The notes beneath the pieces were generated by a model, which did not search any database, was not told the DNA's origin, and saw only the letters and a list, made by a program, of their open reading frames with translations. A DNA stretch of 64,000 nucleotides, taken from assembly GCA_963922205.1 (NCBI GenBank), contig CAWUHX010000017.1, forward strand, positions 744,001 through 808,000, read 5' to 3'. How positions within the stretch are numbered: position 1 is the stretch's first letter; each line of letters begins with the position of its first letter. Made by a program: the position numbers and the translations under genes. The DNA is from Romanomermis culicivorax (lineage: Eukaryota > Nematoda > Enoplea > Mermithida > Mermithidae). Shown here piece after piece: positions 13,623 to 36,229 of this stretch.

Positions 13623-14131
13623 TGAAAAATAGGTTGATTTTGGTGGTGGGTGGAAATAATGTGTAGAAGGATGGAGGAAGGGATAAGGAAAGGAAAGGGA
13701 GGAATAGAGTTCCAGTTCTGGGTTTGGTGTAAATATTGATCAAAGGTAAGGGGTGAGGCAAAATATAGATGTAAAAAGAATGAAATAAATAAATAAATTG
13801 CAACAAACAAAAATGGTGGAATAAACAGGTGGTCGGCAAGGTGGCACAATTTCATACACAATCGTGGTCGGTGAGCTGGCACACTTTCAATATGTTATAT
13901 TTGTAGGCGAAAATATAACACATCAAAATATATTCCTATCCACTGCCAAAAACTGTCCTTTTTCCCAATGATAACAAAAACAGACATGATAGATTTATGC
14001 AAAAATATAATAAGGACAAAAACATAAAAATATGCGTATTTTATTTTATGAATGTGTGGCGTGTTAGGGGAAGTTATCACTGTAGAAAGAGGACTATAGT
14101 ATCAGTTTAGCTAAGTGTATGGTATATAACA
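13623..14131 (-). repeat. 3' LTR of the old Ty3 element
   Basis: 509 bp, read on the minus strand from TGTTATATACC to TTTTTCA. It aligns with 20384-20893 through long blocks such as the stretch around 13660-13730. On the minus strand GTTTCCCCCAGTGGAGGGG stands directly before it, a plausible polypurine tract. Confidence 0.8.
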
Positions 14132-16066: not shown

Positions 16067-16451
16067 TCAAAACTTTTTAACATCCACAATAATTATCACA
16101 TTTTTATCTCGTTTATCAACTAGTGTCACAATGAAAGATCTGCTCCAGTAAAAATGTGTTTTAATTTTCCTTATTCCACAACATAATGAGACGAAATCTC
16201 CTACAGTATAATCACAAGCAAGAGCCTTTCCATCGAATCCTTTTTTTGATGCAGCTTTGGATGCATGCAACTCTATAGTAGTGTTTGGTGACTGGTCGAG
16301 CATCACCAGTGTGGATGGTGTGCTGGACTAAATGTGTTATGGTAGGAGGATCACCGTCTAAGCTGAAGGCGGGATTGTTAGTAAGTAGGAATTGGTGCAA
16401 CTTACTTTTCTGAATTTCATCCAGGTTTGCTTTGGCAACCATTTTGTCCAC
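16067..16451 (-). pseudogene. pol remnant: RT start fused to integrase C-terminus by deletion
   Basis: The upstream frame (16451 to about 16275) shows the N-terminal RT approach with HTGDARPVTKHYYR, matching the same place in the younger element. Directly after it, in another frame, comes an integrase C-terminal domain (YTVGDFVSL...KIKTHFYWSRSFIV, ending at 16067). Several hundred residues of RT, RNase H and integrase core are therefore missing, with a junction near 16265-16275. The remnant cannot make an active enzyme. Confidence 0.75.
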
Positions 16452-16498
16452 ATATAGTCAAAAATTTCATAATTATCCAGTCGAATTGGTGCAGAAGC

Positions 16499-17289
16499 TT
16501 AAGGGGTCATGATCTCATGCACCAGCATTGCAATTTTCCCAATAACTTGTTTTTTGCTTACTTTTATTGGTTCATAGGAATCGTTGATAATGATAATAAG
16601 GAAATGATCTGATTGTGGGTCAATTATTGCAGATTGCATTGAGAGTAAGGTCAAATTTTCATCCATAGAAATCATGCACGGGGGGACTTGCTGAATTTTT
16701 CTCTGCCCCACACCTGTCCCAGTATTACTTGGTCTGTTCAAGGTTGTATCAGTACTGTTTTGGTGGCCACAACAGGCTCTGACATTGCTAATTCATTGAT
16801 ATAACTGGTAGATGGTGCTGGCAATACCTGTCTTGCTGGTTCGGCTGCATGCGGACACATAACTGCTCTGACAGGTGAATCGGATCTTTGAGCATTAAAA
16901 TTTACCTCAAAATTGGCGATATGTAAGGTTCCGGTGCGAAAGTTGAAAACAGCAGCAATGTCTTCATAGGCTAAAAAGTCAGTTCCAATGATGATAGTCG
17001 ATTTGGGGGATGCTAAGATGGTGTAATGTATACTATGTGTGCCTAAGTTCCCCAATTTTGTATAATAATTCACAGGTCCAAACATAGGAACCTGCTGTCC
17101 ATTTGCCACTGTGATGTGTCCCACTGTTGGAAGTGATGTGTGCTCCGCATGAGTAATGTATCTGTACACATCACACCCCATGATGGACGTTGTGGCACCA
17201 GTATCCAAAAGGGTGAAACCTTTCCAATTGTTTATAGTTGCCAGAATTTCAAAAGGCATAGTCCTATAGTACTTCTGAAAAAACATCAA
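16499..17289 (-). pseudogene. Aspartic protease region of old Ty3 element
   Basis: A 183-codon frame (17289-16738) contains the retropepsin site LLDTGATTSIMG and the later IIIGTDFL block. A second frame (16741-16499) continues the post-protease linker with one shift. The order and spacing match the gag-pro ORF of the younger element at 31051-34032. The frame change at 16738-16741 makes it a pseudogene. Confidence 0.75.
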
Positions 17290-20243
17290 TTTGATGGGTT
17301 GAGATAGCGAAAGTAACCCAAAGAGTTGTCTGTAGTGTTCACAAGTGAAATTGTATTTTCGGGATGCTCCATTTGAGGCTGAAAAATCGTTGAATGTTGT
17401 GGAATTTTACTTTTATGACCTCCCAATTGGGGAGTCAACAGTGTCACTTTTTCGCTACACAGAAAAGACATTGTCTCATTGCCTTTACTGTCAGTTGTGG
17501 AGGCTTCTTGACCAATTCCTTGCTGGGTGGAGAATCATGACTTGTCAGCGACATTATGTTGTATGGTAAGTGCAGCATCATTTTGTCTTGAATCATGAAT
17601 GAAAGGCGGTTATGGAGGGAATGGGGATACCATATACGTGGGATTATAGTACTGAGGAGAAAACTGATTTGGTTGACTTACGTTCTGACCCACATTTGGC
17701 ACATTTTGCCCATGCTGCTGGCTGCTGTAGTGCATCACTTGTTTCCATGCCGGTCGACCCCCACAGGGAGTAGTATAGCTACCATTACCTCCAGGAGTGG
17801 AATTCTGGGATACTACCAAAGGCTGATTTTGAGGGCGAGTTTGCTGCCGAGGTTGATATGAATTTTCTGGTGTATTATGATAATAGCCAGAAATGTCTAC
17901 TCCAGGATTTTGGGCAACATATTCTTGGAGTTTGACACATTTTCAGTGGAATGACCAAACAAACACAGTACAAACAACTTCTAGAAACACTAGGTGTTGG
18001 CACTGAATGATGTGCAGGGACTGGCTGCACTGTGGGTACCACATTGCGCTTCACACCTGGTACTCGGGTATTTCGGGTACCTGAGTATACCCAGGTAGAC
18101 CTGGGTACCCCAGTCAATTTTCTGAATGAAACCTGGGTGCTACCTGGGTAGACCCCGGTACCTGGGTCTCAACAAGATATTGTATAAATGGAATATTTAT
18201 ATACTATTACTTGTATTTATGTGCAGTTACACTGAATGAACGCATTTTGCTTTATTAATTCAATGCATTTACCTGCTCAACGTGTTAACAAGGCTGCTTA
18301 TGGCTCTCAAAAAGCCATTGTAGCATATTTTTTGCAACAAAAAATCTATGTGTTTTAACAATGAAGCACAAAACGGAAATATAAAAAAGTCTTCGAGAAA
18401 TTATGCCTGTTTGAAATATCCGTACTCAATACAGTATGAGAAAATAATAAAAGTTGGAGAGATGCATTATGTATAAGATAAAAATCGATGATGATGAGCC
18501 GTTAGAGACAGTTGGACCTGGACCTAGTGGGATATCTAGTTTGGAAATAAATTCATCAAATAGTTGTGATGCATGACCAGGTCACCACAATTTGCTTAAA
18601 AGTGTAAGAAATTTTGAAATATTTATTTTCTTCAAACGAAAAATTTTTTTTTGGAAAAAAAATTTGTTTGAAGAAAATATGTTATTGATTTTTCCTAACT
18701 TTTGTTTAGTAGCACTTTGCAAGGCTTATGCCTCAAAATTTATGAGTTTTCTGAAAATTTTCATGGAGTGTGTTCATTCACTGACTTTTTAAATACTTGC
18801 ATATAGAACCCGGGTACCCAAAAGACCTGGGTCACCCATGTACCCGGGTCCTAGAATTTTGAAAGTGTGAAGCACTAGCACCACAGCCCCTTTTTGCAAC
18901 AGATCGATAATTTGACCCAATAAATTATTCATCACCAATGCATCAGTACTTAAAGTAGATTGCAGGGGCGCAGGTTGAAGGGGTGATGGCCTGGGAGGAA
19001 GTGCTTGCTGACGCCACAAGGGTGTAGAATTACAGTTATTGTGGGGAGAGGAGTTGGTATGGCCACCCTGGACAATGCATTACCAAAAGAATTTTTATAA
19101 TTATTATCTTTATATTTTGAAGAGAGCTTGGCTTGGATTTGTGGCTGGTCGATTACATGACTGGATTCATCGACAGGCTTTGACTCCTTAATTGTCAAAC
19201 ATTGGTGCTTTTGTAGTCTTTTTTCAAAAAGATCGTCCTGGATTTGCAAATCTTGTTCGATTTTGTCACAGAGGGTGACCCGGTCTCGCAATAAAAGAAT
19301 CTGACCTTTCTGATCATTCATAAATGCTTGTATCACTGGTGACAATTTGCCGTAGAATTGACCAATAATCTTCTGATCCTGCTCACGTTCTGATTTTTCC
19401 TGAAAAGAACAGGTGTGTAAGAGTATAATCTGTTAACGAATTGCACACAACTTTCAGAGTCTCCTTGGGAAATATTTGTCTATTCCGGGTGCAAGTCGCC
19501 GAAGGCGTTGGGAGGAGTTAGAAAACTAAGCATTATCTGTTTAGTCTCTTCATAATCAGTGTTATCAACTATAAAATGATAGATGTCGGGATTTGTGGTA
19601 CGCCTGAGAATATCTAATTTGATGCTGTCGGGTAGATTTGGATTGTTTCGGAACTCCCTTTCTAAACTCATAAAATATTGCATTACCGATTTTGTCTTCA
19701 TGCCCATACACAAAGTAAAGCTGGCGAGATTTTGTCGAATTGGCTCGGTAATTTGAATAATTTCTTTTTGTGTAAGTCGTGACCCTTAATTGCTGACGTC
19801 AGTCTATGGCTGCAATGCGGTTAGCAAGTTTGATAGTGGAAAAGAACTTCCATACACCACTTGCTCAGATGAAGAAGGATCAATTTGTATAGGAGGCACA
19901 GAAAAAGATGTTGTAGGAGGAGGCTGACTTACTGAGAAATTACCTGACTCCAAGTTGTCCATTCCTTGCTTTTGGTTTGTATCTTGTCCATTTGGGAGGT
20001 GATGATTTCGAAATGGTTCACTTTGTCAATTGCAGGTGTGGCAATGGCCTGCATATCCAATATGGGCTGCGATGGAACTTTGCTAATTGTTGCTGACGTC
20101 GCGGGTAAGGTGGATCCATGGGGGTCATCGGCATTTGCATCAATGAAATTGTCATCAGTGGGTGATGAAGTAGCTTTGGCTAACTTTACATATCGGGTGG
20201 CTTTAGTCCAAGTAATTTTCAATAATAATTTCCTTCTTGGCAC
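17290..20243 (-). pseudogene. gag remnant, fragmented
   Basis: Short minus-strand frames keep Gag-like order: an N-terminal part (20243-19929), a capsid-like helix region (19713-19480, with IKLDILRRTTN close to the younger Gag's VKLHTLRRLTC), a Gln/Asn/Pro-rich part (19345-18950, 17819-17610), and a broken Cys-rich knuckle near 17940-17990. Stops and shifts are frequent, and a GGGTACC-rich insertion lies at about 18056-18860. Confidence 0.6.
18056..18860. mobile_element. Insertion with GGGTACC-rich inverted ends
   Basis: The left border (18056-18175) and right border (about 18800-18860) are dense in GGGTACC and CCCGGGTAC units and lie inside the old gag. The interior is AT-rich and non-coding. 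The edge motif, with GTGTGAAGC nearby, links it to the fragments at 7223, 42421 and 49471. Exact ends and duplication are unclear. Confidence 0.5.
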
Positions 20244-20367
20244 CCACGAGAAAATCTTCTCAAATCAATTTTTGTTAGTGAAAAGAAAAACAAAAATATG
20301 TGCAAATAAACAACAAAATAAAAAAATCGATACTTACCTACTCACTTTTTTCTCCAATCCCACAAAA

Positions 20368-20382
20368 CTGGTACGGTCACCA
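20368..20382 (-). promoter_or_regulatory. tRNA primer-binding site of old Ty3 element
   Basis: On the minus strand TGGTGACCGTACCAG follows the 5' LTR after one base. It begins with the TGG expected to pair with a tRNA CCA end and differs by one base from the site at 34089-34103 in the younger element. Confidence 0.7.
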
Positions 20383-20383
20383 G

Positions 20384-20893
20384 TGAAGAACAGGTTGATT
20401 TAGGCGATGGGTGGAAATAAAGTGAAGAAGGAAAAACTGAAAGGAGGAAGGGATAAGGAAAGGAAAGGGAGGAATAGAGTTCCAGTTCTGGGTTTGGTGT
20501 GAAGATTGATCAAAGGTAAGGGGTAAGGGCGAAATATAGATGCAAAAGAATGAAATAAATAAATAAATTGCAACAAACGAAAATGGTGGAATAAACAGGT
20601 GGTCCACAAGGTGGTACAATTTCATACACAGTCGTGGTCGGTGAGCTGGTACACTTTCGATAACGTTTTGTTTTTAGGCGAAAATATAACACATCAAAAT
20701 ATACATTCCAATCGAAAAAACACTGCCAGAAACTAGCCTTTCTCGCAAACAATAACAAAAACAGACATGATAGATTTATGCAAAAATACGATGGAGACGA
20801 AAACATTAAAATGTATGCATGTTTTACTCTGTAAATGTGTGACGTGTTAGGGGATGTGATTACTGTAGAAAAATGACCATGGTATCGGTTTCA
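20384..20893 (-). repeat. 5' LTR of the old Ty3 element (truncated)
   Basis: Direct repeat of 13623-14131 in the same orientation. Similarity stops near 20893, where the R repeat begins, so its outer end is missing or displaced. Confidence 0.75.
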
Positions 20894-21410: not shown

Positions 21411-22134
21411 TAAGGTAAAGTGGGGTAACTTTGGTCAAAATCGAGTCAATTCGACTTCTCCAACATATAACTTAATATACATGGGGAATTCGTAAAAATG
21501 TTTCATGGAACTCATATGTCAAAAATGTCAGACAAATCGATTAAACACATCATTTCATAAGTAGCATGCAGATTTAACCTACCATTGATCGTTGAAAAGA
21601 GCTCACTTTTTGACCAATGTTACCCACCATGGTGGTCAACTTTGGTCGCCATTATAATTTCTGTTCAAGTTACTTTTTCGACAAGTAAAATCGTTATATC
21701 TAACCACAGATAGAACGTAACAAAACAAATTTTGGATATGAGGTAACATAGCTATCGACCTTTATTGTCACAAAATTTCAGCTGAAAATGATGAATATCA
21801 TCAACAGCAAAAAAGTTTTCGTAAATCTACATCCAGCTGTCCCTATGGTGGGTAACTTTGGTCAATTGACCTAAAAAAGTGCCTGACGTGAAAAATATTG
21901 TGTTATTCAGATACAGCAAGTTAAGAGGTACATGAAAATATCAATATGAATGAAAATAAAAATATCAATCGTTCAAAATTTATTAACGAAAAAAAATTAA
22001 CGTGTCGACCAATGTTACCCACCAATGTGTGGGTAACATTGGTTGACACACAAAAATATGAGGTACACTAAAACAATTATAAATGTGCATTTTCATGATC
22101 AAAATACATGATATTAACCAAATTTAAAGGAAGA

Positions 22135-22604
22135 TTAATTGTTATGAGTAACACAAACTTGACAAATAAAATTACCAGTGGGATCAAAATCATCAGCTAA
22201 ACAGTTACCACATATCCACCCATCACATCCATCACAGCACGCCCAGTCTTTTTTGTACTTTTTCTTGTAAATTGTCCATTGAATACGGCAAATGGGACAC
22301 ACATTAGTGTTTCTAGCTTTTATCAATTCTTTCAGTTGAGCGCTGACTTCTGGTTCCATCAAAGATTGGCTAAGCGCATGACAAAGACGTTTTCTGGACT
22401 TTTTTGACTCGTTTTTTCGCATGTACCATCTGATGATACTTGATGACACTTGCCGTCATACGTCTCCATGGTGTAACCTCGTTGATGGCTGATGCCGACG
22501 ATGTGGGCGTTTCTGGAAATTTTAGATATCATTCCTCTGTAAATTTCGTAACAAAAGTACATACTTTCAAACGTTGAAGTCGATGATGGAAAAGACAACG
22601 CCAA
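22135..22604 (-). pseudogene. Transposase C-terminal fragment with PHD-like zinc finger
   Basis: The frame 22449-22135 ends with a Cys-rich module: CPICRIQW..., then ACCDGCDGWICGNC and FICQVC, spaced as in PHD-type fingers found at the C-terminus of some pogo/Jerky-like transposases. The frame 22604-22359 just upstream overlaps it in another phase, so there is a shift or an intron between them. No DDE residues were identified. It cannot act alone. Confidence 0.6.
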
Positions 22605-22818
22605 TAAATTTTGTTGTACTACAATTGTTGTACTATTATCTGCAATAATTTAGTATTTAATCGCATAAAAATGTTCAAAAGTGTCTACAAGGTACCGTTT
22701 GATAGTGGACTGAATAACAAAAAAGCCGATGTATTTTTGGACAAGTTCAGTTTCTCTAAAAAGAAATTATCATTGAGTAATTTAGTGTGGTTTTAGAAAA
22801 TATACTTACTGTCAGATT

Positions 22819-23392
22819 TGTCGTGCGTGGGAAAATAAGATGAATAGATGACGACGCAAAGCTGTGTAGCTTGACGATTTTTCGCGCATTTTGAAGAGAT
22901 GTACGGAATGTAGAAGAGCGTGCGGAACGCTATAGACGAAACACTCGGAGTGTTTTACGGAATTAACGCAACGATAGTCGAACGCAGGAGATTGACGGGC
23001 TCGTAGAGAGCGGTGTGTCAATTATCCAGGGATCTTCGCTCAGGTCGTCAAAGGTTTTCGGATGCCGAGACTCTTGCCGTATTACCTTAACTGCTTAGGA
23101 GCTTCACTCGCTTACTCAAACTATTTTCCGAATAGTTTGACTCAACCTAGAACACACTTTTCACACGATTTTACTAATGTACAAGTAGCCGCCTTACACT
23201 TTCAGACAAAACACAAAACACAACCGTCTCTGCTACAGTACAACGGAATCTAATGAAAAACACTTTCATAATTTCTTCACGTTGTAGCCACGCCTCTTCG
23301 GTGGTCTCGTCACAATCTTTCTCATTCAAACTTGCCGATCTTTCTTCGCAAACGACACGAGCTTTACAAATACGCCAAATCGCTCCACAACA
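22819..23392 (-). repeat. 3' LTR of the 11.9-kb Ty3 element
   Basis: 574 bp, minus-strand start TGTTGTGGAG and end GCACGACA, flanked outside by GATT. Same length as its partner at 34109-34682. Confidence 0.95.
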
Positions 23393-23405
23393 CTCCTCCG
23401 CCTTT
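23393..23405 (-). promoter_or_regulatory. Polypurine tract
   Basis: On the minus strand AAAGGCGGAGGAG lies directly before the 3' LTR. It is the expected plus-strand primer of the element. Confidence 0.75.
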
Positions 23406-23739
23406 CGATGTAAAGCGCCTCAAGCGATTTCGACGTGTCGTGGTGAATTGACGTTTTGATCGAATGAGAGCGTTTAGCTCGTTTTTTAGACAAGTTTCTT
23501 TCGACGGTTTGTCTTTCTCGTTTCTCTACTCTGCGGCACATACTACACAAACAAAGAAAATTTAAACAATGTTATCACAAAAATGTTACGGCACATAGTG
23601 ATGAGCAAATGAAAACTAGTATTTCACACCGAGAAATTTAAAATTTTAGAGATTTGAAAGAAAAGATTCTAGTGGAAAAAGAATAAACTAATGAAAGGAA
23701 AAGAGATGCGTTAGCATCGTGATACTTACCCATTTCGAC

Positions 23740-26244
23740 TCATTTCGGCAGAAATCCGCGACCTTTAGGCAAAACTTTGATCGGGGTTTTGCTCGCTTTC
23801 AGAATACCCGGCGGGGGCATTTGTATCGGTTGGCTTGTAGTCGGCGCACATATGGCCAAAGCTCGTTGCGCGGCGCCCAATGATGTTCGAACTCCAACCG
23901 TCAATGGTTGAGTCGTCGCGGGCATTGTCATAGTGATGATCGGGGCCGGTGTCATTTGATACTTTTGCGGTACGACAGCTTTTGCCTTTATCATCGCGTC
24001 TTTCTTTTTCTTTTCCTCGGCTCGCTTGTCCATTTCGATTTGATACTCGCGATGAATGTCTCGGATGATGGCCTTTCTTTCTTCAGTCGCCGGATAATTC
24101 GGGGCTCGCGTATCGGTGAGGCATTGCAAAATGTAGCGTAGAGCCATCGAATACGAATTATCGGTCGTTTTGTAATCGTAGGCCTGTCTAGCATGGAAGA
24201 GAAACAGCGTGAGCTGTGTTATCATGATTGCGTTTTCGGCGCCGTAATACTTGTAGTAATCACACATCCAGCTTAGAAGAACTGCAGTGAGTTCTTCTGT
24301 GCAATGCGGATCTCGTCGCAAATATCGCGCTTGGAAATAGTCAGGAAAGTCCTGCGCTATTTGTTGTGAAGCCGCGGTGGCTTGACGTAAAATGATGGGA
24401 TCGAAATCCAAATGAGCACGATTGAAGTAATTAATGATAATTACTTCGTCGGTCGTTCTCGGTTGGATTTGGGCCGTAATAGGCGCTGTAGGTACGCTGG
24501 GGTACCATTCTTCAGGCGGTGTACGCTGTCTACCGTGTCGTCGATACGGAACTTTGTATTCTCGGACAGTTCGTTGCGATTTTTGTTGTTCGCTAGCCGT
24601 TTCCGCTTGCTGCGACGTTGTTGGTTCGTCGATCATCGGTTCGGAGCCAGCCGTCGGAGGCTGTTGGCCCTCTAAATGTTCTTTTCGCAATTGATCGCGC
24701 TTCAAGGCACTAGCCCATTCGATTCTCTTTTGTCGATCTTTTGATTCACTAGGATGTTCTCGTCCATAATCGCGATCTCAGTGAAATTTTCTAGGACGCT
24801 CGTTTGACGCGTATTCACCATGTTGATATTTTCGACTGTCATAATCGTCGCTTTCTTTTCAAGCAGTAGACCGCGAGGGTCGTTTTCGTGACCGTGATTC
24901 GGTTTCTTTTCGTTCCCTACTACGGGTATCTTCCCGTGATTCGCGTCGTTTTTTAGGTGGGGGCACGTAATTAGGATCTTCTGGGTGAGTGTCCAGATAA
25001 TCCTGTATTGTGCGCAACTGTTTATCGATAGCGTTTCCTCTGCGAAACAGTGAAAACTGATACGCTCTGATGTTACGAATGGGTACACCCTGTTCGTCGC
25101 AAAGCCGATCGTCTTTTACCTCCAAAACTGGAGTGGCGGTTTCGGTACTGATAAGAGTAGAGGTGTCTTCCTCGTTTTTCTTCGGTATTCGGTATCGGCA
25201 TCGCGTAGGTACTATTTTCGGAGGTACCATTTTCGTTTCATCTTCTTCTACGTCATCCATTCGCGAGATATCGTACATCAAGGTGGTTTTTACCAGCGCG
25301 GCTTTTTCTTGTATGTTTTGATTTTTTATCGCTTCCGATTCCAATTTGAATGTACTGTACAATAAGTTTTTGGATAACAGAGTTAACGAGGACCTAGTTT
25401 TAGTCGTCGTTATAGGAGCAGTAGTATCAGCTGTGGATACGTCTTCTTCTTCGCTTTCGAGTTGTATAACATCGGTTTCGGTCAGTAGTTCCGTTTTTAC
25501 CGTGAATGATTCTTCAGCGGTTTGTTTGAGCAAGGAATCGACGGCCATCGCCGTTTCCGTGTCAAATTCGGTATCGGCGGTGGATTGTGTAGGCGTTTCC
25601 GTCGGACTCAATCCCGTCAATATAGCGGTCGGTATGACGGGCAAATTCGAACTCATTGTTAAAATATGACTCGGCGGAAAACAAATGAGTTGCTCGCATT
25701 TTCTCGATGTCAAAATCAGTGAATTGTATGAAAAATAGTAGTAGGGATTTTCCCTGTACTTCTTTTTCGTTACGAGATCGGTTTCGTTGGAGACAGGGAA
25801 GCTGTCGTTTTTGAATACGATTTGGCGCATAAAATATCGATTCGCGTATATCGGTCGTTTATTGTCGCTGCGACTCTTTTCGTTATAGGGCAAACGACTA
25901 GCCCATTCCATTAGTTCGAATTCGAACCTTCCGTCTTGTTTCACCCAATTTTGTTCGCAGATGAGATCTATGTCGATACTGTCACTTTTCGATAACAGTT
26001 TCGAGATCTCATTTTTGATTATGGCTCGCAATTCGTCGTCGTACGGTTCAACGGCGTCGTCGTACGGTTCAATTTTCCCGTCGTCGGTCAAAGAACACGT
26101 GTTGTTTCTGCTACCCTTTATCGTCGGTAGTTTCATAGGGTGCATTTTCAAGCCGAGTGGTTTAGTGGAGTGCTCCACGTTTACGTGATTATACATGCAG
26201 AATCGAATATTCGGGACGTTGTAGTCGTAGTATATGATTCGATT
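23740..26244 (-). pseudogene. Extra ORF after pol: long charged, Arg/Ser-rich nuclear-type protein (broken)
   Basis: One reading frame runs from just after a TAA at 26245-26247 to a stop at 23740, interrupted by TGA at 24859-24861 and 24778-24780. It splits into an 819-codon span from the ATG at 26196. Parts: an unrecognised N-terminal domain; a Thr/Glu-rich acidic stretch; PPPKKRRESREDTRSRERK and further Arg/Ser repeats (about 24800-24990) resembling an RS domain with a nuclear signal; a helical part (about 24100-24450) with DYYKYYG and FHARQAYDY; and a basic Pro-rich tail. No signal peptide or membrane segment is visible, so it is not an envelope. It shares the frame with the last part of the exonuclease ORF, so both may be one product. 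Function unknown. Confidence 0.6.
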
Positions 26245-27161
26245 TTACGCTAAGATTTCGTCGCGCATGATCGCATGCAACATACTTTTCGAGAGCGTGG
26301 GATCTACGACGCCGAAAGCACCCTTTTCGTCGCCTTCGCGGTCGACGTTCGCATTGTCATACAGATTTTGCGTAGCAATGTGTATGTATTTGGGTGGCAA
26401 GAAATCGTGCGGGAAGATTTGTATATTATCGTAAACGCTGTCTACGAAGCCGTAGCGTCCGTACGCTAAAAACATCAGTATCGGATAGTACGCGTCTAGA
26501 ATCGAATACGTCAATACTTGTTCGCTTGCGGAAAATACTAAGTGTAGCATTCTACGTCTAGGGCGAACGCGTCGGCAACGATTCCTTTCAATTTTTCGTT
26601 CTCGGGGCACAAGCCGATCAGACGAGCTCTTTCCCACTTTTCAGGTGAGCGTTCGATATTTTCTAGTATTATCTGGACGTCAACCAGAATACTAGGCGCG
26701 AGCACGTTAGAGTGCGTTTTTCGAGCGTCAGATGAGTAATAGTCACGTCGGTGCATGTCTTTTAGACATTTCCAATCATCGGCTTGATCGAATCCGATTA
26801 CGATCGTTTTAGGGGCCGACACGAATTCGTAGAAGGCCGTCCAATCCTCGGGTGTTGCCGCTAAGGCGTCAAACATTATAGTGTATCCAGTGGGAAAACC
26901 CAGCTGGACGAACCGAGCAACGTGGGTCGCATTCTGGTTCACTATATTCATCTTTGATTTTTTGTGTATATATAGTTGATTAGTCGAGATTTTTTCGACG
27001 TCGAATCTGACTAGCACGTGGCCGCGGAAGTTTGGTTTTGCGTATGCCGATAGGGCGCCTTTCAATTCTCCGCTCTCAACGTATTGAGGATCGCGTAGGA
27101 CGTTGAGCGGTCTTGCATATACCGTCTCGAACCACCGTTCGAATTCCATGATCCGAATCAT
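26245..27161 (-). pseudogene. DEDDy 3'-5' exonuclease domain carried by the Ty3 element (frameshifted)
   Basis: The first frame (27161-26538) has the three parts expected of a DEDD exonuclease fold: VRFDVEK (D54-x-E56), the strand FVQLGFPTGYTIMFDALA, and GFDQADDWKCL with D129. The last motif, [12 protein letters not shown] (Y-x3-D), lies in the second frame (26637-26245). The two frames must therefore join by a shift near 26538-26552. The closest layout I know is the Mut-7/EXD-like group of RNA or DNA 3'-5' exonucleases. It lies downstream of pol, possibly on a spliced message. The shift and the TAA at 26245 make this copy a probable pseudogene. The domain call is good; specificity is unknown. 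Confidence 0.7.
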
Positions 27162-27391
27162 TCGTTTGATATTGTATTTTATAAAATATCATAAAATTTC
27201 GATTAATTTTTGTGAGATTTAGTTTCGCATGGAAACGTCACTCTTTCGAATCGGGGCGTGCAAATCTTCTAGCGAAGTTACCGCGACTCATATTTTTCAT
27301 CGACGGATCGATACTTTACTCTTCCCAGGGGAAGTGAAACCCGGAGTTTCTTTTTTAGAGGCTTTAGTCTATTTGGCAGTGCAGAACTTAC

Positions 27392-27554
27392 CATCCGCAA
27401 AGAAAAATCTGTCCTCTTGACGGTATTGCTTTTTCTGATACGCCACATATCGGTCTTGATCGTTAAAATATTTTTTAAATATGGGCGGCGGATTTATTAG
27501 CGACGTGGATATCGCCGATCCTTGCGACATTGTCCCCTCCGATTCGCTCGCCAT
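27392..27554 (-). CDS. Candidate first exon of the extra gene
   Basis: Starting at ATG 27554, 54 codons (MASESEGTMSQG...) run into a strong donor, GATG|GTAAGT, at 27391-27386 on the minus strand. The same frame then meets several stops before the exonuclease frame opens at about 27161, so an intron is likely. I could not fix its acceptor. A spliced message would resemble the way retroviruses express env. Confidence 0.4.
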
Positions 27555-28047
27555 CGGTTTTCTTTATCAACTTTGTATTTGAACAATTTCAAATTGACCC
27601 GACCGTTTTCTATCGTTTCAATTTTTCGAAATGAAAATATAAGCCAAGGTATCTTGCTAAAAGAGTGAGGTGTAAAGTGGAAAGTTGTTAAACCACGAAT
27701 TTAAATTTTCATGCACATGGCGAAAATGTAAAGTTCAGATTGGTTGGGACCAGAGGAAGATTTTCCTATGGCGCGCGCTTTCTACTCATTTTCTTTTCTG
27801 CGCCACTACTTATGGAAGGTCAATTTATTCGAAATGGACGTGAATAAATACAAAATCACACGATAATGTCACACTCATTCCTTTCACTCATTCCACATAG
27901 AATCTGTATGAGCGCGTTTAGCGCGTTTTGAATATCAGAAACTTTATACTCATCGCTTTGCTTACGATCATTAAATAGTTAGAATTTATTTAACAAAATT
28001 ATAAATTAATGTTAGTTGGAATATATCAAAATTAACAATTTTAAATT
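27555..28047 (-). other. Non-coding spacer between pol and extra genes
   Basis: About 490 bp with no long frame on the element's coding strand. It could hold an internal promoter or splice sites for the extra genes, but none is clear. Confidence 0.4.
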
Positions 28048-31047
28048 TTACGAAGTTTCGGAGGACCGTTGTCTTCCGTTTCTAACATTGCCGATGCTGT
28101 ACGAGGCATGTATGGCTTTACACCAGAAAGTGAGACTTTCTGAGATTGTCCGGGACAATCTAGACTTTGTTATGACGTTTTTCGAAATTTCGGAACTTCC
28201 GACCACTACGAAGGGTCCGATATAGTCTTTATCGATTTTAATCGCTTTTTTGTTGTTAATCAACAGTATGAGATTGTTTAGATCGTATTTCTGCTCTTTC
28301 GCTTTCTTATCGAAGTATCGTTTATGGGATTCGGACGTGTTTTTTAAGTTTTCGGAAACTTCGTTATATAGCGTTAGTTGCGCTTGCGTGAAGATGTACT
28401 GATACGCATCATAGTTTAGCAGTAACGTTAGACTTTTAGCGCAGTCCAAATCTATAGCAATTCTGGGTTCATACCCTCGCAAAAGTCGAAACGGAGAAAA
28501 GTGAGTAGCTGTGTGAGGAACAGCGTTATAGGCGAATGTCGCAAAAGGTAGATATCATTCCCAATTATCGGGGTCTTCAGTGGTGAATTTTTTGAGTTGC
28601 GAAATCAACGTTTGATTGAATCTTTCTACCATTCCATTACATTGCAGATGATACGCAGTGGTATTGATTTTCTGAACTTTTAGAAGTTTCGCGATGTCTT
28701 TCATCAAGTTTGAGGTGAATCCTGAACCCTGATCTGATAGTAGATGTTTCGGGCTGCCATGAACCAAAACTACATTATTTATGAAACTTTCGACTATAGT
28801 TGCTGCTTTTTGATCCGGAATCAAATGAGTGCTTACCCATTTCGTGAAGTAGTCTTGAAATACGATGACGTATGATCTTTTCTCACCCAGAGGGGATATG
28901 TTCACTATGTTGGTCGCGACAATTTCAAATGGATATTTTGGTTGAATCGGCATCAACGGAGGAGGTTTCGGCAACTGAGAAGTCATTTGTTGACAAGTTT
29001 TACACGTTTTGATCCACTTTATTATCGATTCTTCCATTTTCGGCCACCAGAAATGCTGACGAATCATCGCTGTAGTGCGTCTATGACCTTGATGACTCAA
29101 AATCTTTGCGCCGTGAAATTGATACAAAACACTTTCAATCAAAGTAGTCGGAACTACTATCCCGGAAACTGTATTAGCTTGTTTTGATGTTCGGTATACT
29201 ATTTCGTTTTCGGTATGAAAGGCAGATGAAATCGTGGAAATTTGCTTTTGTTCTAGGACTTTTATCAACTTCGCGATGTACGGATCTTTTCTTTGAGCTT
29301 CTATGATTTCTTCCGGCGATTCTATAGTTACTAGCCGTTTCTCAGGCTGTTGGAAATCTTCTTCGAACTTGGGCACTTTACTTTGAGACGAGAGTTTACT
29401 TCTTTCTTCTTTCTGAGTCATTGACCTTGTTATGGCCGCTGCGACAATCTTTTTTCCTTCGCGAAATGTCGGTCTGGATATTTCATTCGTTACTTCTTCG
29501 CTGGTCTTTGACTTTACTTTAGCGCGAGGCTCATTTCGTGATAGAAAATCAGCACAAGCATTTTCTTTGCCTTTCACATACTCAACGCGATAGTCATAAT
29601 CTTGAAGCTTTATTGCGAAGTTTTGAAGTCGCGAATTTTGATGTTTTTCTTCTTTGATCCACTGCAAAGGCTTATGATCAGTTCTGACCGTTACTTTTTG
29701 ACCATAGACATAGTGTCTATACCATCGGAAAGCTTCTACAATCGCTAGACATTCTCGCTCAGTCGTACTGTAGCGGGTTTCTACATCAGAAAGAACTCTA
29801 CTGTTGTACGCGATGACCCATTGATCATTTTCGTTTTCTTGATACAAAATCGCTCCGATAGCAGTTGTGCTAGCATCAGTTTGAATGATGAATTTCGATT
29901 TTTCGTCGTTATATACAGGATATCGCAGAAAAGGAGTTGAGGTTAGAGATGTTTTAATCTCGTTAAAAGCTATACGATGTTCTTCGCTTATTTCATATTT
30001 TGCGTTTTTTCGTAGAAGTTGATAGAGCGGTCGCGAAAGAGTGGCAAGATTTGGTATGAATCGTCTACACCATTGGACTAGGCCCAAAAAACTTTGAAGA
30101 TCTTTGACCATTTTTGGCATTTCATAGTTTACGATCGTGGAGACCTTTTCGGGATCAGGCGAGATTCCATTTTCACTTAGCAAGTGACCAAGAAACTTTA
30201 CTTGTTTCGGTACGAAATCGCATTTATCTGGTCTTAGCGTTAGATTCGCGTCACAGAGAGCATCAAAGATCAGTTGGATGTGTGCTAGATGATCGTTATA
30301 CGTTTGCGAAAAGACTATGATATCGTCGATATAGACCAAACAGATTTTCCAGATATATGGATGCAGGATCCGTTCCATTAGTCTTTGAATTTCAGCGGGA
30401 GCATTTTTCAAACCGAAAGGTAGAACTTTGAAACGAAACAAGCCTTCTTGACTGACGAAAGTAGTTTTATCGCGTGAAGCGATGTCTAAAGGAATTTGCC
30501 AATACCCTGCTTTCAAGTCTAGAGTTGAGAAAAATCATGCATTGCCCAAAGCATCTAGATAGTCATCCATTCTTGGAATCGGAAACTTATCACTAGGAGT
30601 AACTTCATTTATACCTCTATAGTCGACTACGGGTCGCCAACTTCCATCTTTTTTTGTTACCAGAAACATAGGTGCAGCCCACGGTGATCGCGAAGGTTCA
30701 ATGAGGCCTTTTTCTAGCATTTCTTGGATTTTCTGACGAACCATTGGTCTTTGTTCAATCGGCGCACGATAGTAGTGTTTCGCGACTGGTTTTGCATCAC
30801 CGGTGTCTATAGAGACTGTTAACTCGTGAGTGAGAGTAGGCTGATCTCCAGGGAGACTGAAAACATCACGATATTGCTTGAAGACTTCGATAGCGATTTT
30901 TCTATCTTCATCGTCGATATTCAACTTTTCGGTCATTTTTTCAAGAGCTAGTTGAAGTTTTTCTTCTTCCGACATAGTTGGCTGATCTTTAACCAACGTC
31001 GCTGGCTCATAGTCTTCTTCATGATCGCTTAGCGACGCGACAGTCAT
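28048..31047 (-). pseudogene. pol: reverse transcriptase, RNase H, integrase (two in-frame TGA stops)
   Basis: A single frame of 1000 codons with TGA at 30535-30537 and 28555-28557. Order: RT start with KHYYRAP and [11 protein letters not shown] core with [11 protein letters not shown]; RNase H with [10 protein letters not shown] and RTDHKPLQW; integrase finger H-H-C-C ([13 protein letters not shown]...CKTCQQM); catalytic D in [12 protein letters not shown] position less clear, second D in [10 protein letters not shown] in NGMVERFNQ; and a C-terminal domain with YIGPFVVV. Both stops fall inside conserved blocks, and each could arise by one C-to-T change in a CGA codon. The TAA at 31051, one codon before its ATG, keeps it in frame with gag-pro. 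The genes are recognisable but this copy should not make full Pol. Confidence 0.9.
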
Positions 31048-31050
31048 TTT

Positions 31051-34032
31051 TTATTCTTCGAGTCTGAATTTAACCTCAGCGATAAGCTGGTTAGGTTGCA
31101 GATGGATACCGTTCGCACTATTATTGACGAATAATAGTGGACATTTGCCTTCAGTTATGTTGATTATCGCTAGTTCGATCGGATATTCACAGTTTTCTTT
31201 TCCGAAGTTCACGGGCTGAACTATGACGCTTTTGAAGCTTTCGTTTGTGAAAGGAAAGATTTTTCCGTTAACCCACATTTGACAATTCGGTTCTACGTAG
31301 CATGACGAGATATTCAAAATCGGTAGCAATCTGTCGATTTTTACGATTTGCGTTTGACTTTGTCCCGTAGAAGTATTTGAAAATACTTCATCATAGAATG
31401 CTTTTTCGATCGGTTTCAAAACTAGGTTTAGTTCTTGCTGAACGTCTCCGATTCTGATAAAATTTTTGCGAAAGTTTATTACAGCTTGAACGCTCGGATG
31501 TACTAGGAAATCAGTTCCTAGGAGGCATTGCTCTCCTGTAGTAGGTAGTATCCAGCATCGTACTAGATGCGTTCCGAAAGATGAACTGATTTTGAAGAGT
31601 ATCGGACCTCTGGCATCGATGATAGCACCGTCGGCTACTTTTATCTGCGCGGATGTTTCCAAAGTATCATAGTCAATCCCCAAAGAGCGTTGAGCTAGAC
31701 ATGAGGAAATGACTGAACACTGAGCACCGGTATCGATTAACGCTTTCGTTCTGATTTTTCTGATTTCGGCATCGATATGAAAAGCACGAGTAGGAGCATA
31801 TAAGCTCAGAAGTTTGATATCTTTTTGCGAACATTCTTCGATTCGACACACGCTAGATCTCGCGATCCATGGTTCAGTAGGTTTTTTGATTGTGAAATCT
31901 GTGATTCCCGGAGCGACGAAGAAGTTTGTAGCTTTAGAAGCTTCTGTCGGTTCAAGCATATTAGCTGTACTAGTTGTCGGTTTCATCAGAACGAAAGGTT
32001 TAGGTGAGTTGGACACCATTTTGGTTTCTGATGGCAAAACTTGTTGCAAAGATTTCGGAAAAGTTAGCTGAGTCTGTATAGAGTGTGAGTTGTTCATTGG
32101 ATAGTAGTAGTGCTTCTCGATTATCTTTTCTTGTCGGGATTCGGAATCGCAGAGAGAAATGTTTGCAACATCTCTCTGATAGTTTCGATTATCGCGATTG
32201 AAAAATTGGTTGTTTCGGTCAAAATTTTGATTCTGATTGAGCGTGTAGTTACGCGTAGTTTGTTGAAAACGAGGACGCCAATTATGGTTATTTTGCCATT
32301 GATGATTCGGTTGCTGTTGCCGAGGCTGAGAAGCCTGTGGTTTCAATTGATAGCATTCGGAGCTGTCGTGTTTACACTGACCATGATAGGTACAATACTT
32401 TACCGGTCGTTCACGTGACTGATTTCGTTGGAAGTTTCGATTCTGAGAGAAATCCCGTATAGGAATGTTTTCTCTGTTCCAAAAGTTCGGACTCGTCCCG
32501 CGATCAAATCGCGATCTTCGATTTTCGAAATTATTAGCATTTTGCGTATTTTCTCGGATTCCGAACTTTTCTAGGACTCGTTTCACGCTTTCCTCGAACT
32601 CTTTAGTCTTCATTAGAGTCGAATTTTCTTGAAACCTCAAGCTATTTCGCTGTCTAGAGTCATCTCTATTTCGGGGTTGAGAGTTATCTCTGAAACGAGG
32701 TTTCGAATCATCTCTGAAACGCGACTGAGCTGGTTGCTCTTCTGACCAATTTTCGAGTGTATTAACCAGTATAGGTTGTTCTACTCTAACAGTTGACTGT
32801 TTATTTGCTCGCTGAATTTTCTGAACTTTCGCGACGGCTATAGCTAAATCAGTAATCGTTTCTAGAGTACTCGCGTCAATCGAGACTCTGTAAATTTCTG
32901 GCATTTTCCAGAGAAAAGTTGTGATAACTTTTCTATGGCGATACTGAGCGCTTCTGTCATAGTACAGTAGATGTACGTAGGTACTGATTCGATTTAAGAA
33001 AGCTGACGGATCTTCGGTTTCAAAAGGAGCGATAGACTGGAGCTCGCATTGGAGCGTATCTTGGTCGCAATTCGGTGCATTCATACACATCAAAATCTGT
33101 TTCGCTTCATCGTAGGATCGGACATCTCTGATGGTGTTCAGGGCACCATGGCAAGTCAAGCGACGCAACGTGTGAAGTTTTACATAATCAGACGCATCAA
33201 GGCCGAACTCGTTTTTTAGCGCAATGAAGAATTTCAAAACTTGTTGATTTCGGGTCGAATTATCTAGTTTTTGCGGCGCTATCTTTTTACAGATAGTCTT
33301 AATTCTCGTTTCATCATCGGCGAAAGATCTATGCACCTGAGAAGGTAGGATAGACGGAAAATTTATCTGAGAGTTCAGTGCGTTTAGCGTGTTAGAGCGG
33401 TCAAACGTTTGTGTCGGGATGATCAGATCATCATCATCGTCGATTATACTTCGAAAACTAAGTTGACTTTTTCGATCGCTAGTGACGTTTTTCAGTTTAT
33501 TCGATTTCTGAGATTGAGCGTGAGAGCTCGTAGGTCTCGGGATATTTTCGATTTCAGGAATGCTCGGTTTTGTTAGCTCTTCTTTCTGAGCTCTCATTGC
33601 TTCAATTTCAGTTTTTAACTCATCGAGAAGTTTTCGCTGTTGAGTCGCGATAGTTACGATTTCGCTTAACGCCTTAGTAGCGTCGCCACGAAAATTTATC
33701 ATTTCGGCATCACATTTTTGCATTACGTCGATATACGCGTCATTATCGAAGGTTTTTGGAGTTTCGGTCTCTTTCAGTTCGGGTTTTAGAAAGTTAAATT
33801 TTCGATTTTCGACGATTTTCGGAGATAGAGATCGTGAAGTTTTTCCCGTTTTTAACGGAGGGGTTGTTTCTGGTAGATCGAAATTAGGCTTATCTGCTTC
33901 GTAGAGAAGCAGTAGATTCGCGTTTTCGCAGTCCAAATTTTCGATTTCTAGATTATCGGGATTCGCTAGTTTCTTGTAGAAACCTTTTTCGTAACCGAGT
34001 GCTGTAGAGCGACACGTGCAGTTTTCTTCCAT
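31051..34032 (-). CDS. Gag-protease polyprotein of the 11.9-kb Ty3 element
   Basis: 993 codons from ATG 34032, the first ATG after the primer-binding site; the frame stays open upstream into the LTR. The N-terminus is charged and coiled-coil-like. A capsid-like helical region contains LRRLTCHGALNTIRDVRSYD. An Arg/Asn/Gln-rich stretch follows, then a zinc knuckle of unusual C-x2-H-x4-H-x4-C form (CTYHGQCKHDSSEC). The protease has IDTGAQCSVIS and CLLGTDFL. The ORF ends with TAA at 31051-31053, one codon before the in-frame ATG of pol, so Pol could be made by stop readthrough or reinitiation. No internal stop was seen. Confidence 0.9.
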   Translation of the reverse strand: MEENCTCRSTALGYEKGFYKKLANPDNLEIENLDCENANLLLLYEADKPNFDLPETTPPLKTGKTSRSLSPKIVENRKFNFLKPELKETETPKTFDNDAYIDVMQKCDAEMINFRGDATKALSEIVTIATQQRKLLDELKTEIEAMRAQKEELTKPSIPEIENIPRPTSSHAQSQKSNKLKNVTSDRKSQLSFRSIIDDDDDLIIPTQTFDRSNTLNALNSQINFPSILPSQVHRSFADDETRIKTICKKIAPQKLDNSTRNQQVLKFFIALKNEFGLDASDYVKLHTLRRLTCHGALNTIRDVRSYDEAKQILMCMNAPNCDQDTLQCELQSIAPFETEDPSAFLNRISTYVHLLYYDRSAQYRHRKVITTFLWKMPEIYRVSIDASTLETITDLAIAVAKVQKIQRANKQSTVRVEQPILVNTLENWSEEQPAQSRFRDDSKPRFRDNSQPRNRDDSRQRNSLRFQENSTLMKTKEFEESVKRVLEKFGIRENTQNANNFENRRSRFDRGTSPNFWNRENIPIRDFSQNRNFQRNQSRERPVKYCTYHGQCKHDSSECYQLKPQASQPRQQQPNHQWQNNHNWRPRFQQTTRNYTLNQNQNFDRNNQFFNRDNRNYQRDVANISLCDSESRQEKIIEKHYYYPMNNSHSIQTQLTFPKSLQQVLPSETKMVSNSPKPFVLMKPTTSTANMLEPTEASKATNFFVAPGITDFTIKKPTEPWIARSSVCRIEECSQKDIKLLSLYAPTRAFHIDAEIRKIRTKALIDTGAQCSVISSCLAQRSLGIDYDTLETSAQIKVADGAIIDARGPILFKISSSFGTHLVRCWILPTTGEQCLLGTDFLVHPSVQAVINFRKNFIRIGDVQQELNLVLKPIEKAFYDEVFSNTSTGQSQTQIVKIDRLLPILNISSCYVEPNCQMWVNGKIFPFTNESFKSVIVQPVNFGKENCEYPIELAIINITEGKCPLLFVNNSANGIHLQPNQLIAEVKFRLEE

Positions 34033-34088
34033 TTTTTCGGATTTTCGATTTTTCCCAAATTTCGGGGTTTCCTCAACCTTTAGACGAG

Positions 34089-34103
34089 CTGGTACAGTCA
34101 CCA
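34089..34103 (-). promoter_or_regulatory. tRNA primer-binding site
   Basis: On the minus strand TGGTGACTGTACCAG begins five bases after the 5' LTR. It starts with TGG and is almost the same as the site of the old element at 20368-20382. Confidence 0.7.
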
Positions 34104-34108
34104 AATTA

Positions 34109-34682
34109 TGTCGTGCATGGGAAAATAAGATGAATAGATGACGACGCAAAGCTGTGTAGCTTGACGATTTATCGCGCGTTTTGAAGAGACGTACGGAACG
34201 TAGAAGAGCATGCGGAACGCTATAGATGAAACACTCGGAGTGTTTTACAGAATTAACGCAACGATAGTCGAACGCAGGAGATTGACAGGCTCGTAGAGAG
34301 CGCTGTGTCAATTATCCAGGGATCTTCGCTCAGGTCGTCAAAGGTTTTCGGATGCCGAGACTCGCGCCGTATTACCTTAACCGCTTAGGAGTTTCACTCG
34401 CTTACTCAAACTATTTTCCGAATAGTTTGACTCAACCTAGAACACACTTTTCACACGATTTTACTAATGTACAAGTAGCCGCCTTACACTTTCAGACAAA
34501 ACACAAAACACAACCGTCTCTGCTACAGTACAACGGAATCTAATGAAAAACACTTTCATAATTTCTTCACGTTGTAGCCACGCCTCTTCGGTGGTCTCGT
34601 CACGATCTTTCTCATTCAAACTTGCCGATCTTTCTTTGCAAACGACACAAGCTTTACAAATACGCCAAATCGCTCCACAACA
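34109..34682 (-). repeat. 5' LTR of the 11.9-kb Ty3 element
   Basis: 574 bp, partner of 22819-23392, flanked outside by GATT at 34683-34686. Both copies contain a palindromic block around CAAACTATTTTCCGAATAGTTTG (perfect arms CAAACTATT and AATAGTTTG). Confidence 0.95.
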
Positions 34683-34686
34683 GATT

Positions 34687-34860
34687 ACTTTGTTTTGTAA
34701 TGTTCCATGTGGAATATTGTAATCACGAGCTGCTGTTCGAATTTTTGACCCATTTCCAACGGCCTCGATGGCCTTTTTCGAGATCTTCTGTTAAGTAATT
34801 AGTCAGGTATTTGCGCGCATCAGGCTTTCTTTTGTAATGCCTGACCGTATTGTGACGTAA
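34687..34860 (-). pseudogene. Transposase N-terminal helix-turn-helix fragment
   Basis: Minus-strand translation gives KAIEAVGNGSKIRTAARDY followed by NIPHGTLQNKV, the classic Psq/pogo helix-turn-helix DNA-binding motif. Upstream, KRKPDARKYLTNYL is typical of the start of these transposases. The frame is cut at GATT (34683-34686) by the LTR element and would continue at 22818. A GTAAGT just beyond the break (about 22804-22811, minus) may be a donor site. Confidence 0.7.
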
Positions 34861-35400
34861 TCCATGAAAATTATATATAGGATAAAATAATTCGTCTGAA
34901 AAAGAAGTAAGATCAAGTTATTATAAGTAGAAAAGTGTGTGGCACAAAAAATTTTAATTTGACCAAAGTAACCCGCCAAAATATAATGTGACCAATGTTA
35001 CCCGCCCTGACCAAAGTTTCCCGCCAACTGGCCAAAGTTTCCCGCTTTTGGACCGATTTTTCTGCTCCAAAATGGGTAGTTATTTTTTTATACAAAATAG
35101 AAAAGAGAAACTCTCTAAAGACACTTAATAGTCAGTGAAAGTTTTGAGTGCAGCGGATGAGTGAAACCCAAATTTTTTTCAATTTGAAAATTTTCATTTA
35201 AAAAAATGGCAACCTATTCGACCCACAAATTTCTCAATTTTATTTGGATTTCAATTTCCTTTCACAGTAACATGCACTGATCACTTAGACATTAGTGTGC
35301 CAAGTTGTATCTGCATATCTTACAGAGAAAAAATTCGGCGATGTTTCAAGCGAAATTGATCTAAGTTACCCCATGGCCAAAGTTACCCCACTTTACCTTA

Positions 35401-35780
35401 CTGGTTTTAAAATTTTTCCAGTAAAATTCTAGAAATTACGACTTTTAAACACAAAATTCAAATCTGATTCTTGAAATAAACGTTCGGAAAATTGATTTTC
35501 CAGCGTCGCAGAATATCAATACCCAAAAAATTTTTCCGACGCTTCGCGTCCCTTTTGCGTTCTCACTTGTCATTATAGAGGAGTTAACCATCGATTTCTC
35601 ATGTAATTCAAAGTCATTATGCTTTTGGATAGTTTGCTTGAAAGTTTGTTCCAATGCTTGTAGATTAAACTTTGAACTCGAAAATTTCAATTTTTTCCTC
35701 AATTTTGATGAATTCATGGTCTGAAAACACCAGAAGGCTTGAAAAAGCTCAAAAACACGTAAATAAAGCGTCTACTCTTC
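35401..35780 (+). repeat. Dispersed repeat R, right part
   Basis: It continues the repeat begun at 20894-21410. The block from CTGGTTTTAAAATTTTT through AAAACAC-TAAATAAAGCGTC aligns with 43680-43830. A hairpin GACGCTTCGCGTC lies at 35538-35550. Confidence 0.65.
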
Positions 35781-36229
35781 CACTCCGGCAAAATTCCAGT
35801 CTTCCGGGACGGCAGCTTGGGAAAAAGAAAAAAATGACGTCATTCGGTGCCAGAATGCCATATCAAAAATCTAAAAATAAAATGCCGGACGCCGGATGAA
35901 GTATGAATCCGCCTTTAGTCAGACTTTAAGGGACCAAGTATATCATAGGTCGATGCTACGGCGCCACCTATGATGTAATACGTAGTCGAATCCCTCAAAA
36001 TGCGTCGTAATACTCTCAACAAGAGTCGACAAAGCAATTCTCTGTTTGGCAAGCTCCATTATTATATAGGAGGATTTAACCGTTCATCAACTTTATTAGA
36101 TAGGGGCTGAATGACGGAAGAGTTCTTCTCTATTGATCGCATATTTCGAGAATCATGTTTGTCATTATGTCAAATTTATACAAAAAAAATCAAGCATACT
36201 GTAACTTCTTACTTGCACATCATTTTGTT
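35781..36229. other. No gene seen
   Basis: Unique-looking sequence between R fragments. It holds a small inverted pair TATCATAGG/CCTATGATG around 35941-35975. No coding evidence. Confidence 0.4.

What the first reader, a model, noticed from the sequence alone, without database searches (positions are those of the whole stretch)
23740..27554. A retrotransposon carrying a DEDDy 3'-5' exonuclease and a long RS-rich protein after pol
The 11.9-kb element has about 4.3 kb of extra coding sequence in the env position. A DxE motif, a later D and a YxxxD motif mark a Mut-7/EXD-like exonuclease. The rest is a charged protein with Lys/Arg signals and Arg/Ser repeats, with no membrane segment. Mut-7 acts in RNA silencing of transposons in C. 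elegans, so a mobile element carrying a related domain could counter silencing or process RNA. I know of no described Ty3 element with this gene set.
Basis: partly seen in the sequence, partly recalled or inferred. Interest (0 to 1): 0.9.

Follow-up and report, generated by a model that had tools for sequence, protein, structure and literature searches.

The report
Nematode retrotransposon carrying an exonuclease-like gene
A common virus-like jumping gene in a mosquito-parasitic roundworm carries, where a viral envelope gene would sit, a large gene whose protein resembles RNA-trimming enzymes and which evolution has been keeping intact.

Summary
Window 22819-34682 (minus strand) is an 11.9-kb Ty3-type LTR retrotransposon of Romanomermis culicivorax with a third gene (ORF3) after integrase. 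This copy is broken, the family is not: 150 of 150 scored genome rows (2890 candidates) match its exonuclease piece, about 30 in an open frame of about 1273 codons. ORF3 has a 54-codon exon 1, a short intron and exon 2. Its N-terminal domain keeps the DEDDy residues DxE, D, YxxxD (21 copies: 21, 18, 19, 21, 21). Homology to RNase D-type enzymes is weak but colinear; no Pfam threshold was reached and structure prediction failed. dN/dS is 0.08-0.25 in 20 of 20 comparisons, so the protein was useful to the element. A second element family has a related ORF3; 5 of its 20 fetched loci (four distinct) lack the intron exactly, as if copied from spliced RNA. New, as far as my searches show: a nematode case, a spliced ORF3 of about 1327 residues under purifying selection, retro-spliced copies. 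Mechanism is inferred: RNA handling, probably nuclear.

The parts
34109..34682 (-). 5' LTR (TGTTGT...ACGACA)
   Evidence: blastn of the two LTRs, 562/581 identical; ends and flanks
22819..23392 (-). 3' LTR; AATC target-site duplication at 22815-22818 and 34683-34686 (read by eye)
31051..34311 (-). gag and aspartic protease reading frame (frame runs from inside the 5' LTR)
   Evidence: Pfam gag-asp_proteas E 1.2e-10
28048..31050 (-). pol: reverse transcriptase, RNase H, integrase; in-frame stops at 31051, 30535 and 28555 in this copy
   Evidence: Pfam RVT_1, RT_RNaseH, Integrase_H2C2, rve in 28555-30534; no Pfam match in 30535-31050; frames
27393..27554 (-). ORF3 exon 1 (54 codons), followed by GTAAGT donor
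   Evidence: exon 1 in 20 of 20 and GTAAGT at or near its end in 19 of 20 fetched copies; exon1/exon2 junction in 9 of 66 R. culicivorax protein models
27179..27392 (-). ORF3 intron (203 nt in L022); acceptor not intact in this copy, YAG in 20 of 20 fetched copies
26362..27178 (-). DEDDy 3'-5' exonuclease-like domain; D 27002, E 26996, D 26777, Y about 26508, D about 26496; deletion with frameshift near 26523 in this copy
   Evidence: hhalign and HMM tests, residue tallies
24960..26361 (-). ORF3 middle part, no Pfam domain; in-frame stop at 26245 and an internal deletion in this copy
24640..24959 (-). ORF3 charged stretch with RS/SR dipeptides and KKRR; stops at 24859 and about 24778 in this copy
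23740..24639 (-). ORF3 C-terminal part, no Pfam domain
23393..23406 (-). polypurine tract next to the 3' LTR

Best explanation
ORF3 is a genuine third gene of a Ty3-type retrotransposon lineage. Its product of about 1327 residues (54 + 1273) carries an N-terminal DEDDy 3'-5' exonuclease-fold domain and a basic, partly RS-rich, membrane-free remainder. It is made from RNA from which a short intron has been removed. I infer that the protein works in the nucleus or nuage on the element's own RNA, trimming or protecting 3' ends and helping genomic RNA through export or packaging: a job like that of CERV, the spliced env-position protein of the nematode element Cer1, but with an exonuclease fold. 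Shown here: gene order, copy number, conserved residues, purifying selection, an intron and its exact absence in some copies of a related family. Inferred: fold (about 0.85), catalysis (about 0.65), RNA substrate and nuclear site (about 0.45).
For: Copies: 150 of 150 scored rows, 2890 candidates; integrase C-terminus upstream in 19 of 20 family-1 loci and 20 of 20 family-2 loci. Selection: dN/dS over exon 2 0.08-0.25 in 20 of 20 comparisons with L022, exonuclease part 0.04-0.22 in 16, synonymous sites saturated in 4; family-2 exonuclease domain 0.04-0.17. Catalytic residues: 21/21, 18/21, 19/21, 21/21, 21/21; family 2 D 19/20, E 19/20, D 19/20, Y 18/19, D 15/19. Homology: colinear 144-column alignment to RNase D/NrnC-type chains with the motifs in register; two-family profile reached by 2 of 1000 column shuffles, none with 100 or more columns; DEDDy HMM scores 27 of 27 rows, 7 of 9 tested rows beat all 300 shuffles. 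Two of 32 UniRef relatives are named 3'-5' exonuclease domain-containing. Splicing: exons joined at the predicted junction in L042-L046 (L045 and L046 identical); the nearest relative of each of the four distinct copies carries the intron. No membrane segment. CERV analogy: PMC10309623, abstract and passages.
Against: No trusted Pfam, NCBIfam or PDB hit for the ORF3 domain; hhalign probability 2-6% and P 0.007-0.028; of 10 UniRef models tested with the DEDDy HMM only 3 beat all 200 shuffles, 5 were reached by 1-23 and 2 did not score. AlphaFold models failed (mean pLDDT 37.6 and 49.0) and their PDB comparison listed no exonuclease in the rows shown. Among 28 UniRef gene models the DxE glutamate is kept in only 13 (7 K), a third-percentile position, though these models include decayed copies. 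Nothing shows localisation, RNA binding or enzyme activity.
Confidence: 0.5

Rival explanations
1. Counter-silencing: the exonuclease trims or destroys host small RNAs or their precursors, so the element escapes Dicer/RdRP-type silencing.
For: Clade I nematodes are proposed to silence transposons with Dicer/RdRP siRNAs and DNA methylation (worked out in Trichinella; methylation machinery and no PIWI reported for R. culicivorax; PMC4323106, passages). The gene is strongly selected and both families are abundant.
Against: No small-RNA or activity data. Mut-7-type 22G-RNA amplification is not reported in this host, so the C. elegans parallel is loose.
Confidence: 0.2
2. The domain is a non-catalytic RNA-binding or scaffold derivative, as EXD1 and Maelstrom are said to be (PMC5408684, passages), and the protein is structural.
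For: Weak similarity to active enzymes; CERV's G domain is an enzyme fold that lacks catalytic residues in a protein needed for RNA export (PMC10309623); DxE glutamate often lost in UniRef models.
Against: In 21 genome copies the carboxylates and the tyrosine are kept in 18-21, and mostly again in family 2 at 115/286 identity (last D is E in 4 of 19).
Confidence: 0.17
3. cDNA proofreading or 3'-end repair during reverse transcription, letting an unusually long element be copied.
For: DEDD exonucleases proofread in DNA polymerases (recalled) and nidoviruses (PMC7968707, search listing only); the element is 11.9 kb.
Confidence: 0.06
4. Env-like entry protein or a one-off host insertion.
For: Position after pol.
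Against: No hydrophobic segment of membrane length in the window pieces or in six relatives; 150 of 150 scored rows match and a second family has it.
Confidence: 0.03

Closest known systems
Bdelloid rotifer LTR retrotransposons Juno1/2 and Vesta2/5 with DEDDy ORF3 (Rodriguez, Kenefick and Arkhipova 2017, PMC5408684; abstract, passages and section 3.3 seen)
   Same: LTR element, RNase D-like DEDDy ORF in the env position, no membrane segment; ORF3s said there to be typically expressed from spliced messages.
   Different: Different phylum; Juno and Vesta carry a dUTPase between PR and RT, no Pfam dUTPase match here; there DEDD is changed to DEED and ORF3 evolution showed no significant departure from neutrality, here dN/dS is about 0.1; here ORF3 is about 1327 residues with an internal intron.
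Cer1 of C. elegans and its CERV protein (PMC10309623; abstract and passages seen)
   Same: Nematode Ty3/gypsy element with a large env-position protein made from spliced RNA that does not resemble an envelope; CERV is nuclear.
   Different: CERV has H, M and G-protein-like domains and shares peptides with GAG; the word exonuclease does not occur in that main text. No sequence comparison was made.
Cellular DEDDy 3'-5' exonucleases (RNase D, NrnC, Rrp6/EXOSC10, EXD2, Mut-7, WRN)
   Same: Order of ExoI DxE, ExoII D, ExoIII YxxxD and the stretches between them by profile alignment to RNase D/NrnC-type chains.
   Different: Insertions between ExoI and ExoIII; below family thresholds; followed by about 1000 residues of unknown type.

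Membership tests
Ty3/gypsy-type LTR retrotransposon | PR-RT-RNaseH-IN order between LTRs | tested here: met
   Pfam; LTRs
Ty3/gypsy-type LTR retrotransposon | placement with Ty3 elements in an RT tree | not tested
   no reference set was fetched
DEDDy 3'-5' exonuclease | ExoI DxE, ExoII D, ExoIII YxxxD in order | tested here: met
DEDDy 3'-5' exonuclease | significant profile match to the family | tested here: inconclusive
DEDDy 3'-5' exonuclease | RNase H-like fold | tested here: inconclusive
   models of mean pLDDT 37.6 and 49.0; searches
DEDDy 3'-5' exonuclease | metal-dependent 3'-5' exonuclease activity | not testable with these tools
   needs protein
Mut-7/EXD subfamily | closer to Mut-7 or EXD than to other DEDDy enzymes | tested here: inconclusive
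   family-1 profiles hit no PDB chain at all, although Mut-7, EXD1 and EXD2 chains are in that library; no tree made
Bdelloid Juno/Vesta DEDDy elements | dUTPase domain between PR and RT | tested here: not met
   no dUTPase in Pfam scans of the frames 31051-34311, 30535-31050 and 28555-30534 of this one broken copy
Bdelloid Juno/Vesta DEDDy elements | sequence relation of ORF3 | tested here: inconclusive
   59 of 59 profile hits are R. culicivorax; rotifer sequences were not fetched
Cer1-type element with CERV | env-position protein from spliced RNA, exons shared with gag | tested here: inconclusive
   intron inside ORF3 and its exact absence in some family-2 copies; exons shared with gag were not looked for
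Envelope-bearing errantivirus-like element | transmembrane or fusion segment in ORF3 | tested here: not met
   highest 19-residue hydropathy 1.47 in the window pieces and six relatives tested

The most novel reading that the evidence does not exclude
A Ty3-type element lineage has made a catalytic DEDDy exonuclease part of its life cycle, as a nuclear RNA-handling or counter-silencing enzyme, independently of the bdelloid rotifers, and has kept it under strong purifying selection across at least two element families; its RNA passes through an optionally spliced form that is itself reverse transcribed, so that intronless copies arise again and again.
Probability: 0.35. Interest if true: 0.85.

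Novelty: new variant of a known kind. Interest (0 to 1): 0.64.

Why it matters
Enzymatic third genes in LTR retrotransposons are described in bdelloid rotifers, where the authors could not tell whether they helped the element (PMC5408684, passages). Here 300 scored matches in two families of one nematode genome give a clear sign of usefulness (dN/dS about 0.1) and a natural record of splicing. It makes testable whether retrotransposons gain by owning an RNA exonuclease, in a host reported to lack piRNAs.

Tried and rejected
Pfam, NCBIfam and PDB sequence searches of family 1 gave no DEDDy hit; P0054 and L061 gave only unrelated PDB hits. Two structure predictions were too poor; in the rows shown, Foldseek (50 of 597) and VIA (50 of 115) listed NUDIX, COMMD, SMC, dsRBD and other folds and no exonuclease, which shows nothing either way.

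A second GTAAGT at 23729 with a possible small basic ORF4 behind it looked like a further intron; that donor is private to this copy (0 of 20 fetched loci have GTAAGT at that site), so I dropped it.

CpG decay as the reason for E-to-K changes in UniRef models: N/K at D/E codons 63 of 362 after C against 40 of 420 otherwise, but one site (E198, 21 of 24) makes most of the difference; not convincing.

Rfam found nothing in L022, L036, L038 at E up to 1.

Not done: RT tree, host DEDDy genes (PF01612 in the own genome did not complete), intron-loss scan of family 1 (not completed), LTR ages of other copies.

Selection of rows: I chose the 20 family-1 loci by eye from the 150 rows for open frame and spread of identity, so they are not a random sample; the comparisons share L022 and are not independent. 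The 20 family-2 loci are the top 20. In one search, 6 of 21 family-1 copies and 8 of 20 family-2 loci were left out (stop inside or too short). One search stopped with an error after 16 rows (L023-L038).
Full report
What the window holds. The finding lies in a 64-kb stretch (contig C17, 744001-808000) of a 359,112,060-base assembly in 595 contigs. Size and scaffold number equal those printed for Romanomermis culicivorax v2 (359.1 Mb, 595; PMC10879605, passages seen), and 32 of 32 first protein relatives are from that species, a mermithid nematode. The element runs on the minus strand from 34682 to 22819: LTRs of 574 bases, 562/581 aligned positions identical, AATC on both sides, a purine tract before the 3' LTR (read by eye). 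Pfam finds aspartic protease, reverse transcriptase, RNase H and integrase in the Ty3 order.

The third gene. Between integrase and the 3' LTR lies ORF3. In this copy it is broken by stops, a deletion with frameshift near 26523, a deletion in the middle part and an acceptor that is not intact. Other copies show its plan. Nine of 66 R. culicivorax protein models join the piece that ends at 27393 to the piece that begins at 27179, at their residues 46-57. In 20 copies fetched from the genome, exon 1 is found in 20, GTAAGT at or near its end in 19, a YAG acceptor before exon 2 in 20, the integrase C-terminus upstream in 19, and exon 2 is open for 1270-1333 codons in 11 (I chose these 20 from 150 rows partly for open frame). 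In the 150 scored rows I count, by eye, 27 with a 1273-codon frame and no stop inside the match and 3 more of 1270-1333; 2890 places were candidates, and the query was the exonuclease piece only. Three of 66 protein models fuse pol or gag-pol pieces to ORF3 (P0005, its pol part only 37% identical, P0020, P0025), which again places ORF3 behind pol in other copies.

Are the residues kept? In 21 copies, the window's included: ExoI D 21, E 18, ExoII D 19, ExoIII Y 21, D 21. Against this, in UniRef gene models, which include decayed copies, the glutamate is kept in 13 of 28 and is K in 7. In the second family, D 19/20, E 19/20, D 19/20, Y 18/19, D 15/19 with four E.

Selection. Codon comparisons of 20 natural copies, the window's included, with L022 give dN/dS 0.08-0.25 over exon 2 in 20 of 20; the exonuclease part 0.04-0.22 in 16 and saturated synonymous sites in 4; the middle part 0.10-0.35, the C-terminal part 0.07-0.22, the short charged stretch 0-0.45. 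Integrase C-terminus gives 0.05-0.29 in the 16 rows computed. So ORF3 is under about the same constraint as that part of pol. Bdelloid ORF3s showed no significant departure from neutrality (PMC5408684, passages seen).

A second family. P0054, 35% identical to P0002, leads to another set: 150 of 150 scored rows, 3274 candidates, frames up to 1746 codons. All 20 fetched loci have an integrase C-terminus match upstream. Its domain reads GFDTES in 11, ADDW in 10 and YAALDAYY in 8 of 12 rows searched, and one pair is 115/286 identical to family 1. dN/dS of the domain is 0.04-0.17 against three references.

Splicing seen in the genome. In 15 of 20 family-2 loci exon 1 and exon 2 are parted by an intron, 415-422 bases with GT...YAG ends in the four I measured; in some others the sites are decayed. 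In 5 of 20 (L042-L046; L045 and L046 are identical over 3651 bases, so four distinct) the two exons are joined at that junction to the base, with integrase still upstream. The four do not group together: the nearest relative of each carries the intron, and a tree places L042 with L057 (support 1.00) and L045 in another group. The simplest reading is that RNA spliced at this intron is now and then reverse transcribed; spread of one loss by recombination is not excluded. The query spans the junction, so intronless loci rank first and their share is overstated; rows matching from residue 1 number 5 of 150, one more from residue 4. Whether family 1 has such copies was asked and not answered.

An unexplained point. 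Between the older and younger family-1 lineages (13 copies compared), third codon positions of the ORF3 exons differ by 26-65%, while the intron between the exons differs by 7-12% and integrase third positions by 12-21%. CpG decay does not account for it: at non-CpG sites third positions differ by 38% (exon 1) and 30% (exon 2), the intron by 6-8%, integrase third positions by 10%. In family 2 the intron differs by 6-23%, nearer to third positions. So the family-1 intron looks specially constrained, or parts of the element have been exchanged.

How it may work. The protein has no membrane segment, a KKRR-containing charged stretch, and an exonuclease-like domain of a kind that in cells handles RNA 3' ends. 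The best worked analogue is CERV of Cer1: a nematode Ty3 element whose env-position protein comes from spliced RNA and is needed for nuclear export of genomic RNA (PMC10309623, abstract and passages seen). I take ORF3 to be an RNA-handling accessory protein of the same sort, with or without catalysis. Counter-silencing is the main rival: this host is reported to lack PIWI and 5'-triphosphate small RNAs and to have DNA methylation, and its clade is proposed to use Dicer/RdRP siRNAs (PMC4323106, passages; PMC8821070, passages), so the comparison with C. elegans Mut-7 is loose.

Known or new. LTR elements with DEDDy ORF3 were described in bdelloid rotifers in 2017 (PMC5408684; abstract, passages and section 3.3 seen). 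My searches of the open PubMed Central library listed no report of one in a nematode; I judged by titles and abstract openings, and most subscription papers are not in that library. I rate this a new variant of a known kind.

Noticed in passing
window 13673-20840, minus strand: Remnant of another LTR element: direct repeats 6770-6781 bases apart around frames that look protease- and RT-like to the eye (not scanned with Pfam); no ORF3 relative matches there.
   Followed up: partly
L022 1398-1600 against L036, L038, L040: The family-1 ORF3 intron is far more conserved between lineages than third codon positions of the exons on either side; much less so in family 2.
   Followed up: partly
window 22819-34682: CpG observed/expected is 1.56 in the element and 0.90 in the window outside 22001-36000, in a species reported to methylate DNA (PMC8821070).
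   Followed up: no
window 22135-22455, minus strand: 106-residue frame with a weak PHD/RING-like match (E 0.26-0.41) just outside the element.
   Followed up: no
L045 and L046 (contig C350): Two intronless family-2 copies identical over 3651 bases, 68 kb apart on one contig: a local duplication or an assembly artefact.
   Followed up: no
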